A DNA stretch of 64,000 nucleotides from Tieghemostelium lacteum. Taxonomy: Eukaryota > Evosea > Eumycetozoa > Dictyosteliales > Raperosteliaceae. Shown here one piece after another: positions 16,970 to 50,839 of this stretch. Position 1 is the stretch's first letter. Every line of letters begins with the position of its first letter. Below the pieces are notes generated by a model. That model was not told the DNA's origin. It saw nothing but the letters and a program-made list of their open reading frames with translations, and did no database searches. The DNA is taken from positions 796,658-860,657 of the forward strand of contig LODT01000035.1 of NCBI GenBank assembly GCA_001606155.1. The letters are read 5' to 3'. The position numbers and the translations under genes were made by a program.

Positions 16970-19900
16970 ATGGATAGCCATAAAAGAAAACTTGAAGATG
17001 AGAACAATGATCAGTATTATAAAAAATTAAAAGAGGATACTAGTCAACCACCATATGCACCATATCCACCACATGGTGCTTATCCTCCTCAACCACCACC
17101 ACCACAACATGGTGCATATCCTCCTCCACCATCACCTCATGGTGCATATCCTCCTCAACCACCACCACCACAACATGGTGCATATCCTCCTCCACCACCA
17201 CATGGATACCCACCTCATGCTCCACCACCACCACCACATGGATACCCACCTCATGCTCCACCACCTCCTCACGGTTATTCGCCTCAACCATATGGATACC
17301 CATATCCACCTCATAGTGCATATCCTCCACCACCTCCTCATGGTTATCCACCTCCACCATATGGATACCCATATCCACCTCATAGTGCATATCCTCCACC
17401 TCCACCACACGGTTCATATCCATATCCTCCATATGCATATCCACCACATGCTCCACCACCAACACCTCAAAGCCAGCCATCACCACAACAATTACCACAC
17501 CATCCACCTCCACAACATTCCCCACAACAATCACCACCACACCAATTACCTCATCATGAACCTGAAGGCCCACCTCCACCTCCACCTTCCTATGGATATA
17601 AAGAGGAGCCACCTAGACAATCACATTGGGAGCCAAATGAACCTGAAAGAGAACAAAACAGCAGAGGAGACTTTAACAAGTGGAATGATGATAGAGGTTT
17701 TAGACAATCTAGAGATAGTGAACCAAGTTTCAGAAACTCTAGAGACAGAGATTTTGAACCTGAACAAAGAGGAGGTCAAAGAGGCCATAGAGATAGAGAT
17801 GATCGTTATATCAGCAATAATAATAATAATAATAGTATATCTATTTCACCACCTCCACAACCTCAGTCATTCACAACACCAACTTCTCACCAAAACAATG
17901 CATTAACATTGACAAGAAAAACTGGAACAGATGCATCATTTAACAACTCAACTATGGTCAAACAGTACATAAGAAATACTGATTCTAGAAAAGTTCAATT
18001 AAAAGTTAACCAATTCAAATGTGTAATTGGAATAGAGTCATTGTATCAATATTGTGTTTCTTTCTCACCAACTCTAGAAAACAAACAAACAAAAATTGAT
18101 TATATCGCTAAACTGTCTAAGCAAACTGAACATTTTGGTGACTATCAATATGATGGTTTTGCTATGTTATACTCTGTAAAAGAATTCAAAGCCATCGAAC
18201 ACACAATTAATGATACCAAAATTGTTATTTCCTTTGTTAAACACCTACCATCTTCTGATCCATCCTTTTTACAATTTTATAATATTTTACTAAAAAGAGT
18301 TTGTATTTTAAACATATTTTATACATTAAAAATATTAACATTTAAATAATTAGATTATGGTCATGTTGGATCTTTCATTGATTGGAAGACAATATTATAA
18401 TTCCAAGTTGAAAACAAGAATTGAAACTGCATCTTTGGAGGTATGGCCCGGATATTTTGCTAGTATAGGGCAAATTGAATGTGGTATTGCTCTGAATACG
18501 GATATCAGTCATAAAGTTGTAAGAGTTGATTCTGTATTGGACCAATTGCACAGATGCAGACTTGATCCAGACAAGGGTGAAAGTGCTCTTATAGGAAAGA
18601 TTGTCATTACTAAATACAATAACAAAACCTACAGAATCCATTCCATCAAATGGGATATGAATCCAAGTAATGAGTTTGATACTGATAATGGAAAAATCTC
18701 CTTCTTCAGATACTACAAGGAACACTATCCAAACTATCAAATTACACGAAGTAACCAACCATTGATTGCTGTAGAAGTCAAGAGAAAAGGTGCAAAAGAA
18801 ATTCTATACCTAATCCCAGAGCTATGTTTCCTCACTGGTTTGACTGATGAGATTAGATCGAATATCGGTACAATGAAATTGCTTGCTGACAAGACCAATG
18901 TTGATAGTAATACTAGATACAATCAAATTTGCGAATTCATTAAATCCATTAAAGAAAATCCAAAAATTAGAGCTGAAATGGCAAAGTGGTCACTCAAATT
19001 TGAAGATGCTCTACATGTCAATGGTGTTCAGTACCATGAAGGTGGAATCAGAGCAACTGAGAATTCAGCTGAGAAATGGGCTATCATCTTCCCTGAAATG
19101 TTGGAAAAATCTGTTCATGAGATTACTAGAGAAATAAGAATGGCACAGGTTGTAACAGCTCCGGTTAGATCTAACAATGTAAATGAATATATTGACACCA
19201 TGAGACATTTTAAAGAAAATAAGAATATTGATAAGTTTATTTGCGTCATTCCCAAAGGAAATCAAATTGCAAATGCCAGATTTTATAATTCAATTAAAAG
19301 AGCTTCTCTTATTGAATTAAAGGTTGTTACCCAGTGTATAACCAACAAGGTTGTTGATAACTCTAGAAGAGGTCCAATTATCAGTAAGATTACTAATCAG
19401 TTAGTTGCAAAAACTGGTAAAGCTCCTTGGATGCTTAGAGAACCTCTTCGTAACATTCCAAAAGGTACTATGGTTATCGGTATTGATGTTGGTCACAATA
19501 GTGATATCAATGCCAAATCTGTAGTTGCACTTTGCGGTACTCTCAATGATGATTTCAATCAATTCTATAGTTCTGCTCAACTTCAACAGGTCCCAGGTAA
19601 AGAAGTAATTGAAAATCTTACACCTCTCATGTCAGGAGCTCTCAAAGCCTATCATGCCAAAAACAAAACTCTTCCAAAAACTTTAATAATCTACAGAGAT
19701 GGAGTTGGTGATGGTATGTTAGAGGAAATCAATCGTTGTGAGATTGAAGCCATTCGTGTCTCAATCAATTCAATGCCACAATCCATGGGTGAGAAACCAA
19801 CCTTTATCTACATTATTGTCAAAAAGAACACTAATACTAGATTTTTCAATATGAACAATAACTTTGGTAACCCAGATCAAGGAACTGTTATTTTTGAAGA

Positions 19901-25657: not shown

Positions 25658-26754
25658 TTAAATAGAAACAATACCAGCACATTTCTCTTTGAAAGATTTT
25701 GATTTTAAAAATTCATGAAGGGAGTTTTCTATCATCATCTGTTCTAATTCTTCTTGAATGTCATTAAATAGATTACAACACTTTAATAAACCAAACTTTA
25801 TACTTTTTCTATCGAAATCCTCTACATAATCGCTAATTTCACCGCTGGTGCCACTAGGTTCACCAATGTTACTTGGAATAGAACCACGAACAGAACTACT
25901 ACCACCATTCTTAAAAATAACCACAAAAGAATCGTCAGAGGAATTTCCCTCCTTTTCATCTAATCTTAAATTTAATTTTGATGGAGATGAGGGAGGTTGA
26001 ATTGGATGCGCACTAATAAACCCATTTTGTTGATGATGATGATGATTCTCATTGTGTAGTAATGATGTAGAATTGGCAGAAGATGTTGTTCCTGCTGTTT
26101 GATTCGGATCTGAAAATATACTGGATAAATTGGATTTAGATATCAGTTTTCTGAATCTTAATTTCTTTCTTCTCTTTGGAAATGTATCTGACTGTGCTCC
26201 ATTAGATGGAGGTAATATAAATGTCTTTTTTAATGTCTCTTTCAGACGATCTTTTTGTTTTCCATATATATTGATTTCATATCTTGAATTATCTCTAATA
26301 AACTATTTTTAATTAATACAAAAAGGTTTTAGTTATTTGGAATTTTTAAAATAAAATGGGTATATATATAATAATAATAACATACTAATAAATAAATTTC
26401 CTCTGCTATGGAATACATCTCTGGAGGTGTACCGTTTTTATGTTTAAATTTTTCAATTGCTTCCCAACATAATAGATTCTCTACACAAAACTGAAAGCAT
26501 AGAAAATCGTAGAATGCTGACCTGTTTTTGTTTATATTTATAATGGAAAATGTTAAAATTAGTAAATTAGAAGAAATGGTAGAGAGTATCAATACAAACC
26601 TTAAATCTTTATTTTTTATAATTTCCATTAACTTTAACCGCGATGCTTTATTTGATGAACAATATTTTAATGATAGATTGTTCAATATTGAACTTGCGCT
26701 ACTATCATTATTTGGTCCATCATTAGGTGTTGTTGTTGTTGTCGTTGCCATCAT
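25658..26754 (-). CDS. RGS-domain protein (regulator of G-protein signalling)
   Basis: Complement(join(25658..26302, 26386..26521, 26600..26754)), 311 aa. Splicing rebuilds a compact RGS domain: LKLMEIIKNKDLR, SAFYDFLCFQFCVENLLCWE, AIEKFKHKNGTPPEMYSIAE, EIYLLFIRDNSRYEINIYG. This is the canonical F-x-x-FL-x-x-EFxxENLxFW and FI-x-x-x-x-x-x-xIN pattern. The donors are GTTTGT (26599) and GTATGT (26385); introns are 78 and 83 bp. After the domain come a basic stretch (KRRKKLRFRKL), a His run, Ser/Pro-rich linkers and a helical C-terminus. RGS proteins speed GTP hydrolysis by G-alpha subunits; in amoebae this tunes chemotactic cAMP signalling (family knowledge). The core is short, so activity is not assured. 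A 2-kb upstream region suggests complex regulation. Confidence 0.82.
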
Positions 26755-28423
26755 TTAGTCTAAATATTTAAAAAAAGTATAGTCTAAAACTATACAATTT
26801 GAAAAATAAAAACCACTATATATTAATAACAATGTGATAAATTAAATAAAAAAAAAAAAAAAACCAAAAACTAAACAAACCTAAATCCTTTTAAATTAAA
26901 CAAATTAAAACCCTATTTATAGTTTGTTTTTTTTTTTTTTTTTTTGTTGTGATATAAAGTTTTTAAATAAATGTGTTTAGATGTATAAATAGAAATTATA
27001 TGAAAATAAAAAGAAAAACACAAAAATAAAACTAAAAGATAATGTGACAAGCAGAGAGATTTTTGTCCATTAAATTTTGATGGAAGTTGTTTTGTAAACA
27101 CAAAAAGAACAACTAGAGCAAGAACAAAAAGGAGTGTGGGGGTGGTGGGAATAATTTACTTTATCCTTTTATAGGATAATAGGTACCTGTTGTGCTTTTA
27201 GGGGTAGTTTCCAATCAAAACTCTCCATCTTTTTCTCACTAACTCACACTCCCCCTTGAATAAAAGGAGAAAGTTAAATATTTATAGAAGAAAGTATTTA
27301 CTTACTAACTTTATAATTGCTTTTTTTAGTTGTTAAAGCCCAACAAAAAAATAATATTATATAGTTGATGAATATGATGTTAATGTCAAAACAAAAAAGA
27401 AATAAAAATAAAAAGTTTGTTTGTTTTGTTTTGTTTGTTTGTTGTAGTTGTTGTAGTTATTGGTTGTTTGATTTGTGATTTTGTTTTGTGTTTTTCCAGT
27501 TATGTATTTACTTGAGTTATTAGATTGAGAATATCAATAATAGATAGTAAATAAATGTGTGATAATAAATAGATCTCTTCCTCTTAATTATTGAAAGGCT
27601 TTCTTGAATTAGAAAAAAAGAAAAAGAAATAATATATCCAATAAACAAAATTATTTAAACCAAATAAAACAAAAACAAATTTAAATTTGTTGTAAGAGGA
27701 AAATAGAGTGAGAGAGATAGTACTGCTATTCTCTATTTTAAACATTAACCTAATACACACTAACTAATATATTGTAAGAGTAAAAAAGAGAGGGGATATA
27801 TTGGGGTGTTGGGTGAAGGGGTATAGTGGGTTAATTTATGGGGGTGTGTGGATGGTGACTATTATCGAGTGAATTTTTATGATTTGTGATGTTAATTTTA
27901 TTTTTACCTACCCAGTTGAATTGTTTTTAGTGTTTATATTAGAGATTGTTAGATTCTTTGTTCTGATGGTTTAAATGTATATTTTTGGGTGAATTGTTAT
28001 AATCAATTAAAAATTATTATATAATTGTATATATATTTATGCTACCCCCAATAAAAATGTTTACGAGAGAGTAAAGTGTTTGTTTAAAAGTTGAGTGTGA
28101 GAGTGAGTGTGTATCTATTTTTTTGAACCCATTTCATTAAAGATTTGATGAGGAATTCAATTTAGAAAAAACAATCAAAATATAGATTGGATAGTTAAGG
28201 TAATTGATTAATCCTCTTCTCAAATTTTAAAATTTTAAAAAAAAATCAAAAAAATCGATCATTACTTCAATTAAATTCTTTTTCCTATTTACTTTCATTT
28301 AAAAATCATTAATTCAATATTAATAACCATCCAACCCACCTGTAATATAACTTAAAAGATAGTTATAATGTCTTTTGATTAATTAAAAGTACATATGTTT
28401 TTTCATTAATTTTATAAAAAAAG
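26755..28423. other. long intergenic/promoter region upstream of the RGS gene
   Basis: About 1.7 kb without coding potential. It contains pure A or T tracts (26849-26863, 26929-26945), a hairpin TTATCC/GGATAA at 27161-27179, an 8-bp inverted repeat GGAGTGTG/CACACTCC at 27131-27138 and 27245-27252, and several G-rich stretches (27131-27150, 27803-27860). A GTAAGT on the reverse strand (donor at 27305) with a TAG just before the RGS ATG could mark a leader intron, weakly supported. Confidence 0.5.
27803..27860 (+). promoter_or_regulatory. G-rich cluster with G-quadruplex pattern
   Basis: Four G runs (27803-27806, 27811-27813, 27818-27821, 27828-27830) with loops of 4, 4 and 6 bases fit the G3N1-7 rule, followed at 27840-27855 by GGGGGGTGTGTGGATGG-like sequence (read from the G at 27840). 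In D. discoideum, G/T-rich boxes of this kind bind the G-box factor GBF and drive post-aggregation genes (established there). In this very AT-rich setting the cluster stands out. Its target could be the RGS gene on the left. Confidence 0.4.
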
Positions 28424-28639
28424 AGCAAGTCAGAAACTTTCACAACAACTAAATAGAAATCCTACTTCCTATAAAGACGATCATCAATGACAGTGACTGT
28501 TGATAGAAATCAATAATCAAAGTCGGCTTCCCGCTAAAGCTGTGAAAGTGTGGATCAACATCCTTGCTGAGATTTTGAGTATTTTCAGAATAAAAAATAC
28601 TTTGACGTTCCTCTTGAAATGAATCCTAAGAGTTTGGTC
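28424..28639 (-). ncRNA. U3 small nucleolar RNA
   Basis: The reverse strand reads as a full U3 snoRNA of about 215 nt. The 5' part is GACCAAACTCTTAGGATTC followed by ATTTCAAGAGGAACGTCA, matching the box A'/A region of U3 (AGGATCATTTC...AGGAA-CGTCA in yeast). Box B is AGCGGGAAGCCG (28524-28535), and box C is TTGATGATCG (C core at 28481-28486). Box D is CTGA at 28430-28433, followed within a few bases by the 3' end and a T run. Order and spacing follow the family, and the length equals human U3. U3 pairs with the 5' ETS and 18S precursor and directs early small-subunit processing (established). The exact ends are estimated to a few bases. D. discoideum U3 is known as D2 RNA. Confidence 0.92.
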
Positions 28640-28696
28640 ATAACTTTAAAAAATAGATAATTCAATTTTTCTATTTCATTCTACTCGCCTTCTTTT

Positions 28697-28703
28697 TTAT
28701 GGT
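28697..28703 (-). promoter_or_regulatory. DUSE-like upstream element of the U3 gene
   Basis: The reverse strand reads ACCATAA, one mismatch from the Dictyostelium upstream sequence element (CCCATAA) that precedes many small RNA genes about 60 bp from their start (established in D. discoideum). Here it lies about 58-64 bp upstream of the inferred U3 5' end. Confidence 0.65.
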
Positions 28704-28771
28704 TTAGAAAAAAAACGAGTTCTTTTTGAATAATTATTATTTTTAATTTTTTATTTAATTTAATTTAGAGA

Positions 28772-29165
28772 ATGAGTATTTCATCATTTTTATTTGGTGA
28801 AGAAACTTGTTTTACAATTTATGGATTTCCGTCATGTAGGGTTTCTACTACACAATAATCAACAAGTAATATTATAAATAAAAACTAATCTATTTAAAAT
28901 AGGTCAATTCTATCAAAGAGCTGTAAAATTAGGACAAAATCTTGAGAATAATAACTCAAAAATTAAATTTACAATTAATGAAATCAAAAGAGAGGAATGG
29001 AAAGATTATTTAGAATCTAAAAAACAAGAGTTAGGTGATAAATCTAGATATCATAATACTTGTCCATTGGTAGTTTCAGGTTGTGGAAATGATACTAAAA
29101 CTTTTATTGGTGGTTATTCTGAATTCCTAAATGAAGCCAAAAGAAAGAATTATAAAAGATCATAA
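28772..29165 (+). CDS. glutaredoxin-like protein
   Basis: Join(28772..28835, 28903..29165), 108 aa; the intron (28836-28902, GTAGGG...TAG, phase 1) splits the Cys codon of the active-site region. The spliced protein reads CFTIYGFPSCQFYQRAVKL, then EIKREEWKDYLES, YHNTCPLVVSG and FIGGYSEFLNEAK. The order beta-strand, xPxC-x-x-x-x-x-A, then TxPxV and FIGG-x-x-E is that of a glutaredoxin fold. The active site has a single Cys (PSCQFY instead of CPYC), hinting at a monothiol mechanism, but the protein lacks the usual CGFS motif. The cellular role cannot be told from sequence. Confidence 0.75.
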
Positions 29166-29166
29166 T

Positions 29167-29274
29167 ATCTTTATAGAATATAACATAGGACCTGGTTCAC
29201 CATTAATTTTCTTTAAAGATCAATCTATAGTTTTTGTTAATCTCAAAATTACCTATAGTAGATGTAAATTATGA
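29167..29274 (+). other. short coding-like segment, unassigned
   Basis: One frame is open for 35 codons and reads GPGSPLIFFKDQSIVFVNLK in its middle, with amino-acid usage like real coding sequence. It begins just after the glutaredoxin stop, in a different frame, and has no ATG. It may be an alternative last exon, a remnant of a duplicate, or chance. Confidence 0.25.
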
Positions 29275-29393
29275 GTTGTAAATATCAAAATAAAGTAATC
29301 AATATTCACTTTGATTTTTTTTCAAATTCACACTAATAGTTTTTTTTTGTTTTTTTTTTTTTTTTTTATTTTTGAAATCATAGTGATAATTCG

Positions 29394-29892
29394 ATGTCTG
29401 CATTATTTAAATTAATTCCAAGATCATTTGTTAAAACTTTACAAAACTCTGCATGGTTAGAGCACAGAAAGATGGGTATGTGGAAATTTTAGAATCATTC
29501 ACAATATTGGAATTATATGGGTAGGAGCACAGGTTTCGATCAGATTATTAATACAAATGGGGATCAATATAGGTTTATATTATGCCGATCTTTACAATGA
29601 GACACCAGTTTTACAAGAAGTTTACAGAAGAATGCCAGATGATCTTATGGTTAAAAGAGACAGAAGATTAAGAGTCGCAATGGATTTAAGCGTTCAAAAG
29701 AAACTCTTACCAGGTATGTGTAATTTTAGAGTAGACTTAATTCAAAATCAAGAATATCATATTAATAGGATAATACATTTAGAAAACGAATGGTCAGATG
29801 TTAAAGAGGATTTAAAATATACAGAATTTATTGAAAGTGAAATGAAAAAAGTTTCATCTGAATTCGAACTCAGAAAAGCTTTCAGAGATTAA
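29394..29892 (+). CDS. uqcrb: UQCRB / QCR7 subunit of respiratory complex III
   Basis: Join(29394..29475, 29573..29713, 29783..29892), 110 aa. The product contains GLYYADLYNETPVLQEVYRR, MPDDLMVKRDRRLRVAMDLS and, after the second join, KKLLPENEWSDVKEDLKYTE, matching QCR7/UQCRB (YGLxxDDL, RRLPED, LLPKNEWTKPEED). Intron 2 (29714-29782, GTATGT...TAG) is 69 bp with no stop, so an unspliced reading stays open and carries a spurious 23-residue insert; homology demands its removal. Intron 1 (29476-29572) runs to the TAG at 29570-29572 rather than the nearer CAG at 29532. The protein is a matrix-side subunit of the cytochrome bc1 complex (established). Confidence 0.88.
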
Positions 29893-30082: not shown

Positions 30083-33000
30083 TTATGGATACTGATTTGG
30101 ATTTTGATGATCACCACCACCTATATTATCAAGATTTTCATCAACAGCATTATTGTTATTATCATTGTTATTGTTATTATCATTTGGAATTGGATTTGGG
30201 TTTAAATTTGGAGAATCGTCAATGGTGATATTATTGAAATTATTATTGTTGTTGTTTATATTCATTGGGGGCATTTCAATGTCATCATCATCATCTTCAC
30301 CTTTGTCATGGAACATCTTGTGATATCTACCCTTGTTGGCAATGAGTTCATCATGGGTACCTTGTTCAACTAAATAACCTTTTTCAAGTACAAATATTCT
30401 ATCACAATCACGAACAGCAGCAACCTTGTGAGCAACCATAACAACAGTGTGACCTTGAGTAAGTTTCTTTATAGAGTTTGTAATAGCCTCTTCAGATTCA
30501 GGATCCAATTCAGAAGTAATTTCATCGAGTAACATAATCTTTCTCTTTGCACATATAGCTCTGGCAATTGCAATTCTCTTCTTTTGACCACCTGACAACA
30601 AGTTACCAGCAGATCCTAAAACAGTTTGGTACTGTCCTGGTAAATCTACAATAAATTCATGAGCATTTGCCAATTTGGCAGCTTCTTGAATCTCTTCTAG
30701 TGTTGGATCATCAATGGCATAACCAATATTCTCAGCAATAGTTGCATCGAATAGATATGGTTGTTGATGTACACAGGTAACAAATCCTCTAAGAGTTGAT
30801 GGTCTTATCTTATTGATATCGATATTGTCCAGTAGAATCTTACCGTCTTGTAATTGATAGAATTTGGAAATCAATTCTAATAATGTTGATTTACCACTAC
30901 CTGATGGACCTACTAAACCATAACATTTACCATTCTCCAATTTCATATTGATATTATGTAGAACTTCAACTTCAGGTCTAGTTGGATATCTAAAGTTAAC
31001 ATTCTTGAATTCAATGTCACCTTTAACATTATCCAATTCAACATAGTTAGATTCCAATACATTCATCTCCATAACTGAGATACCAGTTTGTTTATAGTAC
31101 TGTTCTTGTTGTTTCTTCTTTTGTTTTTTCTGTCTCTTTTTAAGTTCCTTAGCACTCAATGTACTCTCATCTACATTATCTTCTGTAATTTCACTTTCAG
31201 TATTATTGTTATTATTATTGTTGTTATTATTATTTGGATTTGGAGTATTGATGATTGCACCATCAACTTTTGGAGATGTTGATGTAACTACAGAACCCTT
31301 TTCATCTTCTAATCTCTTCTTTTCAGCTTCATCTCTATCAGCCTTCTCCTCTTCTAATGTAGTACGTTTTCTAGGAGCTGAACGAAGGATCATAAAGACT
31401 CTAGTAGCAGAAGCAAGAGATTGTACATAGGATATATAGACACCAAACAATGTGTTTGAAGATTCAATTACATAACCAATATACAATGAAAAACTGACTA
31501 AAAGACCAACTGAGAATTCCTTATTGATTGATAAATAAGTACCATAGTAGAGAATAGTGAATGCAAGTGACTCAACCATAAGCCATTTAATGGAACTTGC
31601 CAAGGTATTGTTGATAATAAGTTTACGAGCTGTAATGAAGACGTCCATCAACTGTGTAGAGTACATTTTAATTTCCTTTTCTTGACGACAATAGTTGGTG
31701 ACAACTTGCATGTTTACCATAGACTCTGTACCGTGTTTAGATGCCTTACTGTTGTGGTAGAGAAGTGCTCTGGTTAGACGTTTAGAGAACTTGGATTGAA
31801 CTTGAGTTACAATTGCCAAAACTGGAATGGTAGCAAAGAATGCTAAGGATAGCTTCCAAGAAATGGAGAAGATGAATACCAAAGATCCAACAAATTTACA
31901 AATACCAGTAGCAATACTCAATGGAATACCAGTTAGTGCACTTCTGAGCATTGGTGAATCTACAATTAAAACATTCATTAAAACTTGTGGATTGTTCTTT
32001 TGGAAGAAACCCATATCCTGTGCAATCAGTGCTCTAAAGACCTTGTTTTGAAGTTTCATAACCATTCTTTCATTTACAATACCAGTGATCCATGATGATA
32101 TGGTTGAGAATACAAATTCAATGAATGCCAAGACAAAAATGTAGATAAAGTCTGAACGAAGGTCTCCAATACTATTGGTTGTTGGAATGGCTTGAATAAT
32201 CTTACCGATGTAGAATGGTTGGAGAATGGAAGCTGCTGTAGATACCAATGAACACCCAGTTGCAATAACCAATGAGATTATAAATGGTGATACAAGACAA
32301 TATAAATCTGGAATGGTGACTTTGGATGTCTTATCCTTGTATTTAATATTGATATCTGATCTCTTTCCTTTTCCACCATAATAAGAACCATTTCCATCCT
32401 TGTCTTCTTTATACTCTAGATACTTGATTAGACCAATGAAGACACTCATTAAAATCATAGTACCACCAGCAACAATCATTATGATATAGTTATAAGATAA
32501 GAATTTATCACATTTCTTGCTGAGTGAATTGTAATTGTAACCATCATTACATGAGGAAACTATACAAGTAGACCATTGAAGATCGCCCTGACAATGTTGT
32601 GAACCTACACCATTGGGTACTGAACAAATTTGAATTTCACCAGGACCACATTGGGGACATGTTTCAGCCCATTCATATGTACCTTGATCACCATGTACTA
32701 CAAATGAAAAAGGTTGACCTACTGGTTTACCTTCAGAATTTAATCTAGGGATAGGAACATTAGTTCCGATAATTGTGAATTTCAATACACTGGTTTGATT
32801 AGGTTTGAATATAATAGTTTCAACATTATTAATTGTATCAGGAATGGGTATTCCTGCACCATTATTAATTGAATTTCCAAGGAAAATGGTGTTGAGAACT
32901 CTCAATTGTAGATCGAGGTTATTTACAAGATTATAAAATGCACCACTGTTGGAGGGTGGATCTGACCATACTAATGTACCAGTAACTGAAGGAACTGATG

Positions 33001-35421
33001 TATTTCCACTGATTGGAGTATATTTTACACAATAGCTAACAGATTGATTTGTTGTGACAGAAGATTCTTTCCAATCTAATGGAGATTGGCCACGATCAAG
33101 TCCACCTAAACCAATCCATCTTTTTGATGGGTTACTGGAGAATGATAATAAGTCACCGAGTTTAATAGCACCCCAACCTTGAGCATTGGAGGATCCTGGG
33201 ACTTTACCTTCATTTGCCTTTGGGAAGGTACCATCCGCAATTTGATATGTTCCATTTACAAGCTCTGCATTATTGATCAAAAGTGCTTTCAAAAGACTTG
33301 CTGTGGGTTTCATTTTGTGTTGAGCATTTGGAGATCCACTTGGGTAGTAACCTTCTGTCAAATACTGACGGAGGATAAGTGCAGAACCAGCAGCTAATGG
33401 AGTTGCCATAGATGTTCCTTCAAGTGCCAAAAGATTATCAGAAGTTGGTGTACCAGCACCACACTGATCAGTAGCATCGTTACCATTAGATCTAGAAGAT
33501 ACAATAAATTGACCTGGTGCTACCAAATCTGGTTTAATTCTACCATCAAATGTTGGACCTCTACTTGAAAATGATGCAATATTATTTGGAGAGAATTTAG
33601 CTGGACCTCCAATTTGTGTTTGATTCAAACTTATTGCTTTTAGAGTATCTGGACAACATGCTTGTAAACCCCTTACAGTTGCCTGATCAGTACAACATTG
33701 AGTTGGTGTATAGGTACAATATATATCATTGAATGCACATGCTCCTCTAGTTATAAAACTCTGAGCTGTTTCTACATAATTTGTAAATGTTGGTGCATCC
33801 AAAAAACTTTCAAATCTATTCATTTGAGCACCAATAACCAATGCATTCTTTGCAGTGGCTTGTGATAACAATGCTCCAAACTCTCCTTCATTACCTGCAG
33901 CTCTTAAAATTAAAAAGTCCTGTATTTAAAAATATTAGTATATAATTAATATATTCGTTAAATGTTTTGTAAAGTGTGAAAACATACTTCATTTTTGTAA
34001 ATAAAAGTGTCAATTTCCATTGCAGGCACTGAATAACTGCCATCAAAACCCAAGAGTGAGAAAGAACCCCATGAATCACCGTGAATTCTTGCACCGACAT
34101 CATAGATTCTCTGGTACATATCAATAAGTGATGCTGGTGGTTGTGGACCTGTATCAGTGGGCTTTTGAATATCATAAAATGCAATTTTAGCTTGATTAGC
34201 AACACCTTGGTACTCGGCAATTGGTAGTGTAGATTGAGCAGGTGCACCAGCCATTGAGCCAGCTACATGTGTACCATGACCTTCAACAGTATCTTCCAAA
34301 TCAGCTGATGTTGAGATATAGGTAACAATTTTTCTGTGATTCATATTTATGGTATTGAATGGAACTGGATTGTTAACATCAGAGAAGAAACAATGACTAA
34401 CATCTATACCAGTATCAGCAATACCAATGATTTGACCTTGACCTCTCAATGGAATATCTTGATTGTTATTCTGAACAAAATCACCATTGACACGTGAGAA
34501 CAGTACAGTAGGTGCAAATTTATTTGCAGTTTTACTTGGTAGATATCTTTCAAGCCACATACACTCCATCTGAGATGCAATCCAATTGTATACAATTTTT
34601 TCGTATCTCTCTAAAGGATATTGATCACCATTTTTAGAAACTACTAATGAACGAATTTTAAAACCAACTGGATCTAAATCAAATTGAATATCAACCATTG
34701 GATCACCCCTAATTAACTGATTGAGGTATGATTTTTCGTCTATAATCCATTTGGTTTTTAGATTTTCCAAGATTTGTAATTTTTCAATGGTTGTGAGAAT
34801 GTTTAGAATTTCATCATGACTTGGAATATTTAGGAGAATGTCAACTGGAAGACCAACTAGAACATTGAAATCATTGGATACCTTGTGATTGGATTCATAT
34901 TTACCAACCCATGAGATAAATTTCATAGTTTTGGCTAGATCTAGAGCCTGTTGATTTGACATTACGACTAAGAGACTGTCATGTGGTATATAGCTTATAA
35001 TTCTAGACTGATACAATATATCACTGTGATCCCATTTAGTCTCACCAGAAGATAGATAGTCACTAACAATGGATTTATCATTGTGATCAATTGTGGATTT
35101 GAATTGTACCAAATAAAGATCCATATCCAAATGACTGTTTACTTGTTGGCTTAGTGCCTTTTGATTGTATCGATAATTGTCATGATGAATACTTGGTACA
35201 GATCTAGTATCTATAACTTGACTCTTCAAATGAATATTTTTTGCATTTGGAGAGATCTCTACAGATTTTATAGAATTTCCAAACCAATCTTGAAACGTAT
35301 AGGTACCACTACTTTTATTGGTTTTATATGTATACTGACTTACTGAATACTCCAGAGCAAACAACAATGCAACTGCTACAAATCCCAATAATAGGAATCT
35401 AATATATGGTTGATTTTTCAT
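30083..35421 (-). CDS. tag-family serine protease / ABC transporter fusion
   Basis: Complement(join(30083..33919, 33988..35421)), 1756 aa; one 68-bp intron (GTATGT...CAG, phase 0). An N-terminal signal anchor ([17 protein letters not shown]) precedes a subtilisin-like domain with the triad D336 ([11 protein letters not shown]), H382 (GHGTHVAG) and S648 (EGTSMATP). The wide H-to-S spacing reflects a Cys-containing insert ([16 protein letters not shown]). A further beta domain and membrane helix (about 960-985) lead to one ABC membrane domain and one nucleotide-binding domain: Walker [10 protein letters not shown] (about 1480), signature LLSGGQKKR, Walker [10 protein letters not shown]. The tail is acidic and Asn-rich. 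This architecture is known from dictyostelid TagA-TagD; TagC is thought to process and export the SDF-2 peptide precursor in prestalk cells. Which paralog this is cannot be decided here. Confidence 0.95.
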
Positions 35422-50451: not shown

Positions 50452-50553
50452 TTGGTTTCTTTCATGATGACACGAAAATAAACTCAGCTCTATGATTTTT
50501 AGTGATTTAAACTTATTTTTATCTCACGACAGTCTTCTGACCTTTGAAACCAA
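50452..50553 (+). ncRNA. C/D-box snoRNA candidate 1
   Basis: All marks of a C/D snoRNA are present: an 8-bp perfect terminal stem (TTGGTTTC 50452-50459 with GAAACCAA 50546-50553), box C ATGATGA (50464-50470), box D CTGA (50537-50540), and a box C'-like GTGATTT at 50502-50508. The guide region before box D (50521-50536) is the reverse complement of AAGACTGTCGTGAGAT, which matches the strongly conserved large-subunit rRNA sequence AGACCGTCGTGAGA with one difference. By the D+5 rule the C of AGAC would be 2'-O-methylated. From memory this rRNA segment carries several methylations in yeast. Not intronic; it lies in an intergenic gap with a second candidate. Confidence 0.8.
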
Positions 50554-50730
50554 AAAATATACTTTTTTAAATTCATATTCATAATTGTATATCAAAACAA
50601 GTAAACTAATTAGAGCATTTATTTTCAGATTTTTAATGATTAGTCATTACTCAATTATTTAGTACAGAATTTCATCCGAAAATGTTAAACTCTTTTGCTC
50701 ATAAAATGTAGGTCTTATTACAACTTTATT

Positions 50731-50839
50731 GTTAACAATAGACTTTATGATGATTATTGGACACTATTGAATTATACTTGATATCAACATCAATTTTTAA
50801 AGCGTTATCTATATTTTAAATGTCTGACCTTTTGTTAAC
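50731..50839 (+). ncRNA. C/D-box snoRNA candidate 2
   Basis: About 180 bp downstream of candidate 1 and in the same orientation. It has a perfect 8-bp terminal stem (GTTAACAA 50731-50738 with TTGTTAAC 50832-50839), box C ATGATGA (50747-50753) and box D CTGA (50824-50827). As in candidate 1, box D is followed by CCTT. Box C is 8 nt from the stem, a little further than usual. The guide before box D is very AU-rich (TCTATATTTTAAATGT) and I cannot name an rRNA target. Clustered, independently located snoRNA genes are known in Dictyostelium. Confidence 0.6.

What the first reader, a model, noticed from the sequence alone, without database searches (positions are those of the whole stretch)
28424..28639. 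Complete U3 snoRNA gene on the reverse strand with a correctly spaced DUSE-like element
Boxes A, B, C and D are present in order with family-like wording, total length about 215 nt, and an ACCATAA lies about 60 bp upstream. Small RNA genes of non-model dictyostelids are often missing from annotations. The gene sits alone between an RGS promoter and a glutaredoxin gene.
Basis: partly seen in the sequence, partly recalled or inferred. Interest (0 to 1): 0.75.

Follow-up and report, generated by a model that had tools for sequence, protein, structure and literature searches.

The report
Ordinary U3 snoRNA gene, social amoeba
This is an ordinary, apparently intact gene for U3, a small RNA that nucleated cells use to process their ribosomal RNA, here in a social amoeba and with the promoter element expected for that group.

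Summary
Rfam U3 (RF00012) matches window 28425-28641, minus strand, full length (model 1-219 of 219), 81.4 bits against a gathering score of 34, E 3.7e-16 for the whole window; it is the only family above gathering in 64 kb. Boxes C and D match the Rfam consensus; boxes A, B and C' carry one substitution each. In the 3' domain 38 of 42 model pairs stay standard, 21 of them with both bases different from the consensus. ACCATAA lies at -62 to -56; its spacing, not its presence, is the evidence. A two-C DUSE is what a published survey reports for dictyostelid Groups 2 and 3. A T7 run starts 2 nt past the predicted 3' end, so Pol III cannot be excluded. No genome, RNA data or other dictyostelid U3 could be reached: expression, exact ends and copy number are open. 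Verdict: a new member of a very well known family, low interest. By-product: a DdR16...DdR5 box C/D snoRNA pair at 50461-50829, in the order of the D. discoideum CD16-CD23-CD5 cluster.

The parts
28425..28641 (-). U3 snoRNA gene, predicted mature RNA (217 nt)
   Evidence: Rfam RF00012, 81.4 bits, full length
28697..28703 (-). DUSE-like promoter element ACCATAA, -62 to -56
   Evidence: a copy at this spacing is found at 0.075% of AT-rich positions
28603..28640 (-). 5' hairpin with the GAC, A' and A boxes: stems UGAC/GUCA and CUCUU/AAGAG; the loop holds AGGAUUCAUUUC (28616-28627), in which the predicted fold adds 3 weak pairs
   Evidence: folding, alignment, coordinates
28578..28601 (-). second hairpin of the 5' domain (AGUAUUUUU/GAAAAUACU)
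   Evidence: folding, coordinates
28555..28561 (-). box C' AUGUUGA (one mismatch to RUGAUGA)
   Evidence: alignment, coordinates
28526..28535 (-). box B AGCGGGAAGC (U to G against the Rfam consensus gCGUGAAGc)
   Evidence: alignment, coordinates
28477..28487 (-). box C UUGAUGAUCGU, as in the Rfam consensus
   Evidence: alignment, coordinates
28430..28433 (-). box D CUGA
   Evidence: alignment, coordinates
28416..28422 (-). T7 run starting 2 nt past the predicted 3' end; possible Pol III terminator, not shown
   Evidence: T7 within 10 nt at 2.3-2.8% of AT-rich positions

Best explanation
A probably working, independently transcribed U3 box C/D snoRNA gene of a dictyostelid. A DUSE at about -60 directs transcription from about 28641 towards lower coordinates. 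The 3' domain would form the C'/D and B/C motifs that carry the core box C/D proteins and the U3-specific protein. The 5' domain would pair with the 5' external spacer and the 5' end of 18S rRNA, and so guide the early cleavages that release 18S rRNA. Shown here: family membership by sequence and structure, kept stems, box order, promoter spacing. Weakly supported: a U3-18S pairing in the expected register, with a recalled stand-in for 18S. Inferred from established knowledge of the family: transcription, protein binding and role in processing.
For: Full-length Rfam match, 81.4 bits against 34 needed. 3' domain: 38 of 42 pairs standard, 21 of them changed on both sides against the consensus letters (that alignment is fitted to the model). 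Box-B-to-box-C pattern found once in the window, mean 0.00 in 100 shuffles. DUSE-like element at -62 to -56. U3 nt 1-20 with the 18S 5' end: -13.0 kcal/mol, with GAC, A' and A pairing in turn; reached by 23 of 2000 shuffles of the 18S piece and 34 of 2000 of U3. Two further Dictyostelium snoRNA family matches point to dictyostelid DNA.
Against: No transcript data. Box B, a conserved element, carries a U to G change, box C' one mismatch to RUGAUGA and box A one substitution. In the 5' domain 5 of 21 model pairs are non-standard and 3 fall in gaps. Folding energy is only moderately better than shuffles (z -1.89; 9 of 200 as good). With U3 nt 1-45 the 18S duplex is not significant (74 of 1000 and 134 of 1000 shuffles reach it), and 97 of 3000 random window 20-mers pair with the 18S piece as well as nt 1-20 do.
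Confidence: 0.93

Rival explanations
1. A diverged, silent U3 copy (pseudogene) beside active copies elsewhere. U3 genes are often multi-copy; the D. discoideum D2 genes were described as a dispersed family (recalled, not seen in a call).
For: Substitutions in boxes A, B and C'. Copy number could not be tested, as no genome is held.
Against: Full-length match without truncation, most stems of the 3' domain kept with many two-sided changes, boxes C and D as in the consensus, and a promoter element at the right spacing.
Confidence: 0.05
2. A real U3 gene that is transcribed by RNA polymerase III, ending in the T7 run at 28422-28416, rather than by Pol II. This concerns only the polymerase and is compatible with the best explanation.
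For: T7 starts 2 nt past the predicted 3' end. PMC2784804 (passages seen) says that trypanosomatid, other protist and plant U3 genes examined are Pol III genes; the abstract of PMC5832005 calls U3 a gene transcribed by polymerase III; PMC7919456 (passages seen) says that DUSE is associated with both Pol II and Pol III genes.
Against: T7 within 10 nt is found at 2.3-2.8% of AT-rich positions by chance. No TATA[AT] in the 100 nt upstream. Recalled, not checked: D. discoideum D2 RNA has a trimethylguanosine cap, which points to Pol II; PMC5832005 also states that U3 RNAs feature this cap.
Confidence: 0.25
3. A chance match in AT-rich intergenic DNA.
For: None found.
Against: E 3.7e-16 over the whole window, and no other family above gathering in 64 kb.
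Confidence: 0.001

Closest known systems
U3 snoRNA, Rfam RF00012
   Same: Full-length sequence and structure match, order of boxes, two-hairpin 5' domain, extended 3' domain
   Different: Box B GCGGGAAGC in place of gCGUGAAGc; box C' AUGUUGA; box A GGAUUCAU where the consensus reads GGaAUCAU; 8 of 21 model pairs of the 5' domain not kept
D. discoideum U3 (D2) RNA, GenBank V00190 nt 62-271 (accession as cited in PMC2784804, passage seen)
   Same: Similar length (210 nt by those coordinates, 217 predicted here); same group of organisms
   Different: The sequence could not be fetched, so it was not compared base by base
Dictyostelium upstream sequence element (DUSE)
   Same: CCATAA core, first base 62 nt upstream; published as about 60-63 nt
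   Different: Two Cs, as reported for most class I RNA gene elements of A. subglobosum (2B) and D. lacteum (Group 3) and all of P. pallidum (2A); Groups 1 and 4, with D. discoideum, have three (PMC7919456, passage seen)

Membership tests
U3 snoRNA (RF00012) | Covariance model score above the gathering score | tested here: met
   81.4 against 34 bits, model 1-219 of 219
U3 snoRNA (RF00012) | Boxes C and D of the box C/D class | tested here: met
   UUGAUGAUCGU and CUGA match the Rfam consensus
U3 snoRNA (RF00012) | U3-specific boxes B and C' | tested here: met
   Both present at the model positions, each with one substitution
U3 snoRNA (RF00012) | 5' domain pairs with the 5' end of 18S rRNA | tested here: inconclusive
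[quoted passage not shown]
   No genome of this species is held
U3 snoRNA (RF00012) | Nucleolar RNA of about 210-220 nt, with its cap type | not testable with these tools
   No RNA data
DUSE-controlled dictyostelid ncRNA gene | [AT]CCCA[AT]AA, or a two-C form in Groups 2 and 3, about 60-63 nt upstream of the start | tested here: met
   ACCATAA at -62 to -56, the two-C form; pattern, C number and distance from PMC3188802 and PMC7919456. That it drives transcription here was not testable

The most novel reading that the evidence does not exclude
This dictyostelid U3 gene is transcribed by RNA polymerase III from a two-C DUSE and ends at the adjacent T7 run, unlike the capped U3 recalled for D. 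discoideum: a switch of polymerase inside one group of amoebae.
Probability: 0.15. Interest if true: 0.4.

Novelty: new member of a known kind. Interest (0 to 1): 0.15.

Why it matters
It adds one U3 gene, with a DUSE-like element at the expected place, to a dictyostelid genome. U3 is described as ubiquitous in eukaryotes (PMC5832005), so its presence is expected. The useful parts are practical: a U3 sequence and promoter for tests of polymerase choice, and the sign that Rfam searches below the gathering score can recover Dictyostelium snoRNA families in another dictyostelid.

Tried and rejected
Search for other U3 genes by a box-B-to-box-C pattern: 1 locus in viral contigs and 21 in prokaryote genomes. 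I scanned 15 of these 22 with Rfam at gathering and 0 of 15 held U3 (only two tRNAs were found). The 7 not scanned (L005, L008, L010, L012, L013, L015, L020), left out because of the size limit per call, were only looked at as sequence. Nine of the 22 share a span of 72 bases; of these nine, six look alike and two others look alike by eye, as shared protein-coding sequence would. I take them as chance or coding matches; no relative was gained.

The genome of the window is not held, so copy number and rRNA could not be tested. Three papers on D. discoideum ncRNA and spliceosomal RNA (PMC516072, PMC2175303, PMC1489274) are not held. A paper search for 'D2 RNA' gave one unrelated paper. Repeats in 26700-29600 looked like low-complexity A/T-rich runs, nothing that bears on U3 (25 of 99 inverted pairs shown).

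The glutaredoxin reading of the divergent neighbour: a two-exon model (28772-28835 joined to 28903-29165) gave no Pfam match up to 0.001, two irrelevant ones up to 10, and three PDB sequences at E 0.028 to 0.092, not significant. I therefore call it an unidentified small protein.

The 18S pairing test was first run with U3 nt 1-45, and with nt 10-32 (-8.2 kcal/mol, no control), and then, after those results, with nt 1-20. The last is therefore not an independent choice.

Full report
What is there. The minus strand of 28425-28641 matches the Rfam U3 model over its whole length (model 1-219 of 219) with 81.4 bits, where 34 are needed; E is 5.7e-18 for a 1-kb stretch and 3.7e-16 for the 64-kb window, in which it is the only family above its gathering score. 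ARAGORN (run with the bacterial code) found no tRNA or tmRNA gene in the window.

Anatomy. The 5' hairpin (28603-28640) has stems UGAC/GUCA and CUCUU/AAGAG around a loop that holds box A, AGGAUUCAUUUC; the predicted fold adds three weak pairs inside that loop. A second hairpin follows at 28578-28601. The order C', B, C, D is kept. Boxes C and D match the Rfam consensus. Box C' (AUGUUGA) has one mismatch to RUGAUGA. Box B reads GCGGGAAGC where the consensus has gCGUGAAGc. Box A reads GGAUUCAU where the consensus has GGaAUCAU. In fungi C' varies more than C, while the core of box B is conserved (PMC5832005, part 1 of 3 of the text seen), so the box B change deserves comparison with relatives.

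Structure. Of 42 pairs of the model's 3' domain, 17 have the consensus letters, 21 differ on both sides and still pair, and 4 are non-standard. Of 21 pairs of the 5' domain, 8 are the same, 4 changed on both sides, 1 on one side, 5 are non-standard and 3 fall in gaps. The alignment is fitted to the model, so these counts lean towards it, and they compare with consensus letters, not with an ancestor. The folding energy of the whole RNA is moderately low: z -1.89, 9 of 200 shuffles as good.

Pairing with 18S rRNA. U3 nt 1-45 gave -14.8 kcal/mol, reached by 74 of 1000 shuffles of the 18S piece and 134 of 1000 of U3: not significant. U3 nt 1-20 alone gave -13.0, with the GAC box, A' and A pairing in turn; 23 of 2000 shuffles of the 18S piece, 34 of 2000 of U3, and 97 of 3000 random window 20-mers reach it. 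The shorter query was chosen after the first result. I count this as weak support.

Promoter and 3' end. ACCATAA is at 28703-28697, -62 to -56. The motif itself is not enriched in the window (15 seen, 17.4 expected), but a copy with its first base 58-66 nt upstream is found at 0.075% of AT-rich positions, or 0.64% for a looser DUSE pattern. PMC3188802 (passages seen) gives DUSE as [AT]CCCA[AT]AA, about 63 bp upstream of many ncRNA genes. PMC7919456 (passages seen) reports, for class I RNA genes, three Cs in Groups 1 and 4 and two Cs in most elements of A. subglobosum (2B) and D. [quoted passage not shown] pallidum (2A). A two-C element therefore hints at a Group 2 or 3 species; this is an inference from a single site. 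A T7 run lies at 28422-28416; such a run within 10 nt occurs at 2.3-2.8% of AT-rich positions. It would suit a Pol III terminator, but proves nothing; no TATA[AT] lies in the 100 nt upstream.

Surroundings. The next gene recognised downstream on the same strand begins near 26754, with a weak RGS match (21.7 bits, cut-off 23.9). A divergent plus-strand gene may begin at 28772 (ORF list), so that the U3 promoter would lie in a gap of about 130 bp between the two. I could not confirm that this neighbour is a glutaredoxin. Beyond it lie an ORF with a ubiquinol-cytochrome c reductase 14-kDa subunit domain and one with subtilase and ABC transporter domains.

Is the DNA dictyostelid? A permissive Rfam scan of the window (E up to 1) found, besides U3, DdR16 at 50461-50542 (54.1 bits, E 9.4e-6), DdR5 at 50744-50829 (42.5 bits, E 0.029) and a weak bacterial sRNA match taken as chance; all three are below gathering (70 for the two DdR families). 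The two DdR matches, in this order on one strand, recall the D. discoideum CD16-CD23-CD5 cluster (PMC8817022, passages and abstract seen). No exact CTGA or RTGATGA lies between them, so a CD23 with standard boxes is not evident there. This supports a dictyostelid; that it is not D. discoideum is an inference from the lower scores.

Verdict. The finding is right and ordinary. D. firmibasis, another dictyostelid, has been annotated for snoRNAs with Rfam models (PMC11193728, passages seen). Whether this very locus is already annotated could not be checked. Open points are expression, exact ends, copy number and the polymerase.

Noticed in passing
window 50461-50542 (+) and 50744-50829 (+): Two box C/D snoRNA genes, DdR16 (54.1 bits, E 9.4e-6) and DdR5 (42.5 bits, E 0.029), in the order of the D. 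discoideum CD16-CD23-CD5 cluster (PMC8817022). Both are below Rfam's gathering score of 70 and were missed by the scan at gathering. Between them there is no exact CTGA or RTGATGA, and no ACCATAA or CCCATAA lies in the 100 nt upstream of the first.
   Followed up: partly
window 16970-18346 (+): An ORF with a weak match to the Argonaute N-terminal domain (27.0 bits, cut-off 30.9).
   Followed up: no
window 27836-27843 (-): A canonical DUSE-like CCCCATAA in the long stretch between U3 and the RGS gene; 6 such sites seen in the window, 5.0 expected, and no Rfam match with E up to 1 downstream of it.
   Followed up: partly
window 30083-35421 (-): Two neighbouring ORFs that together look like one subtilase-ABC transporter fusion of the Tag type (name recalled); the subtilase domain is split between them, perhaps by an intron.
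   Followed up: no
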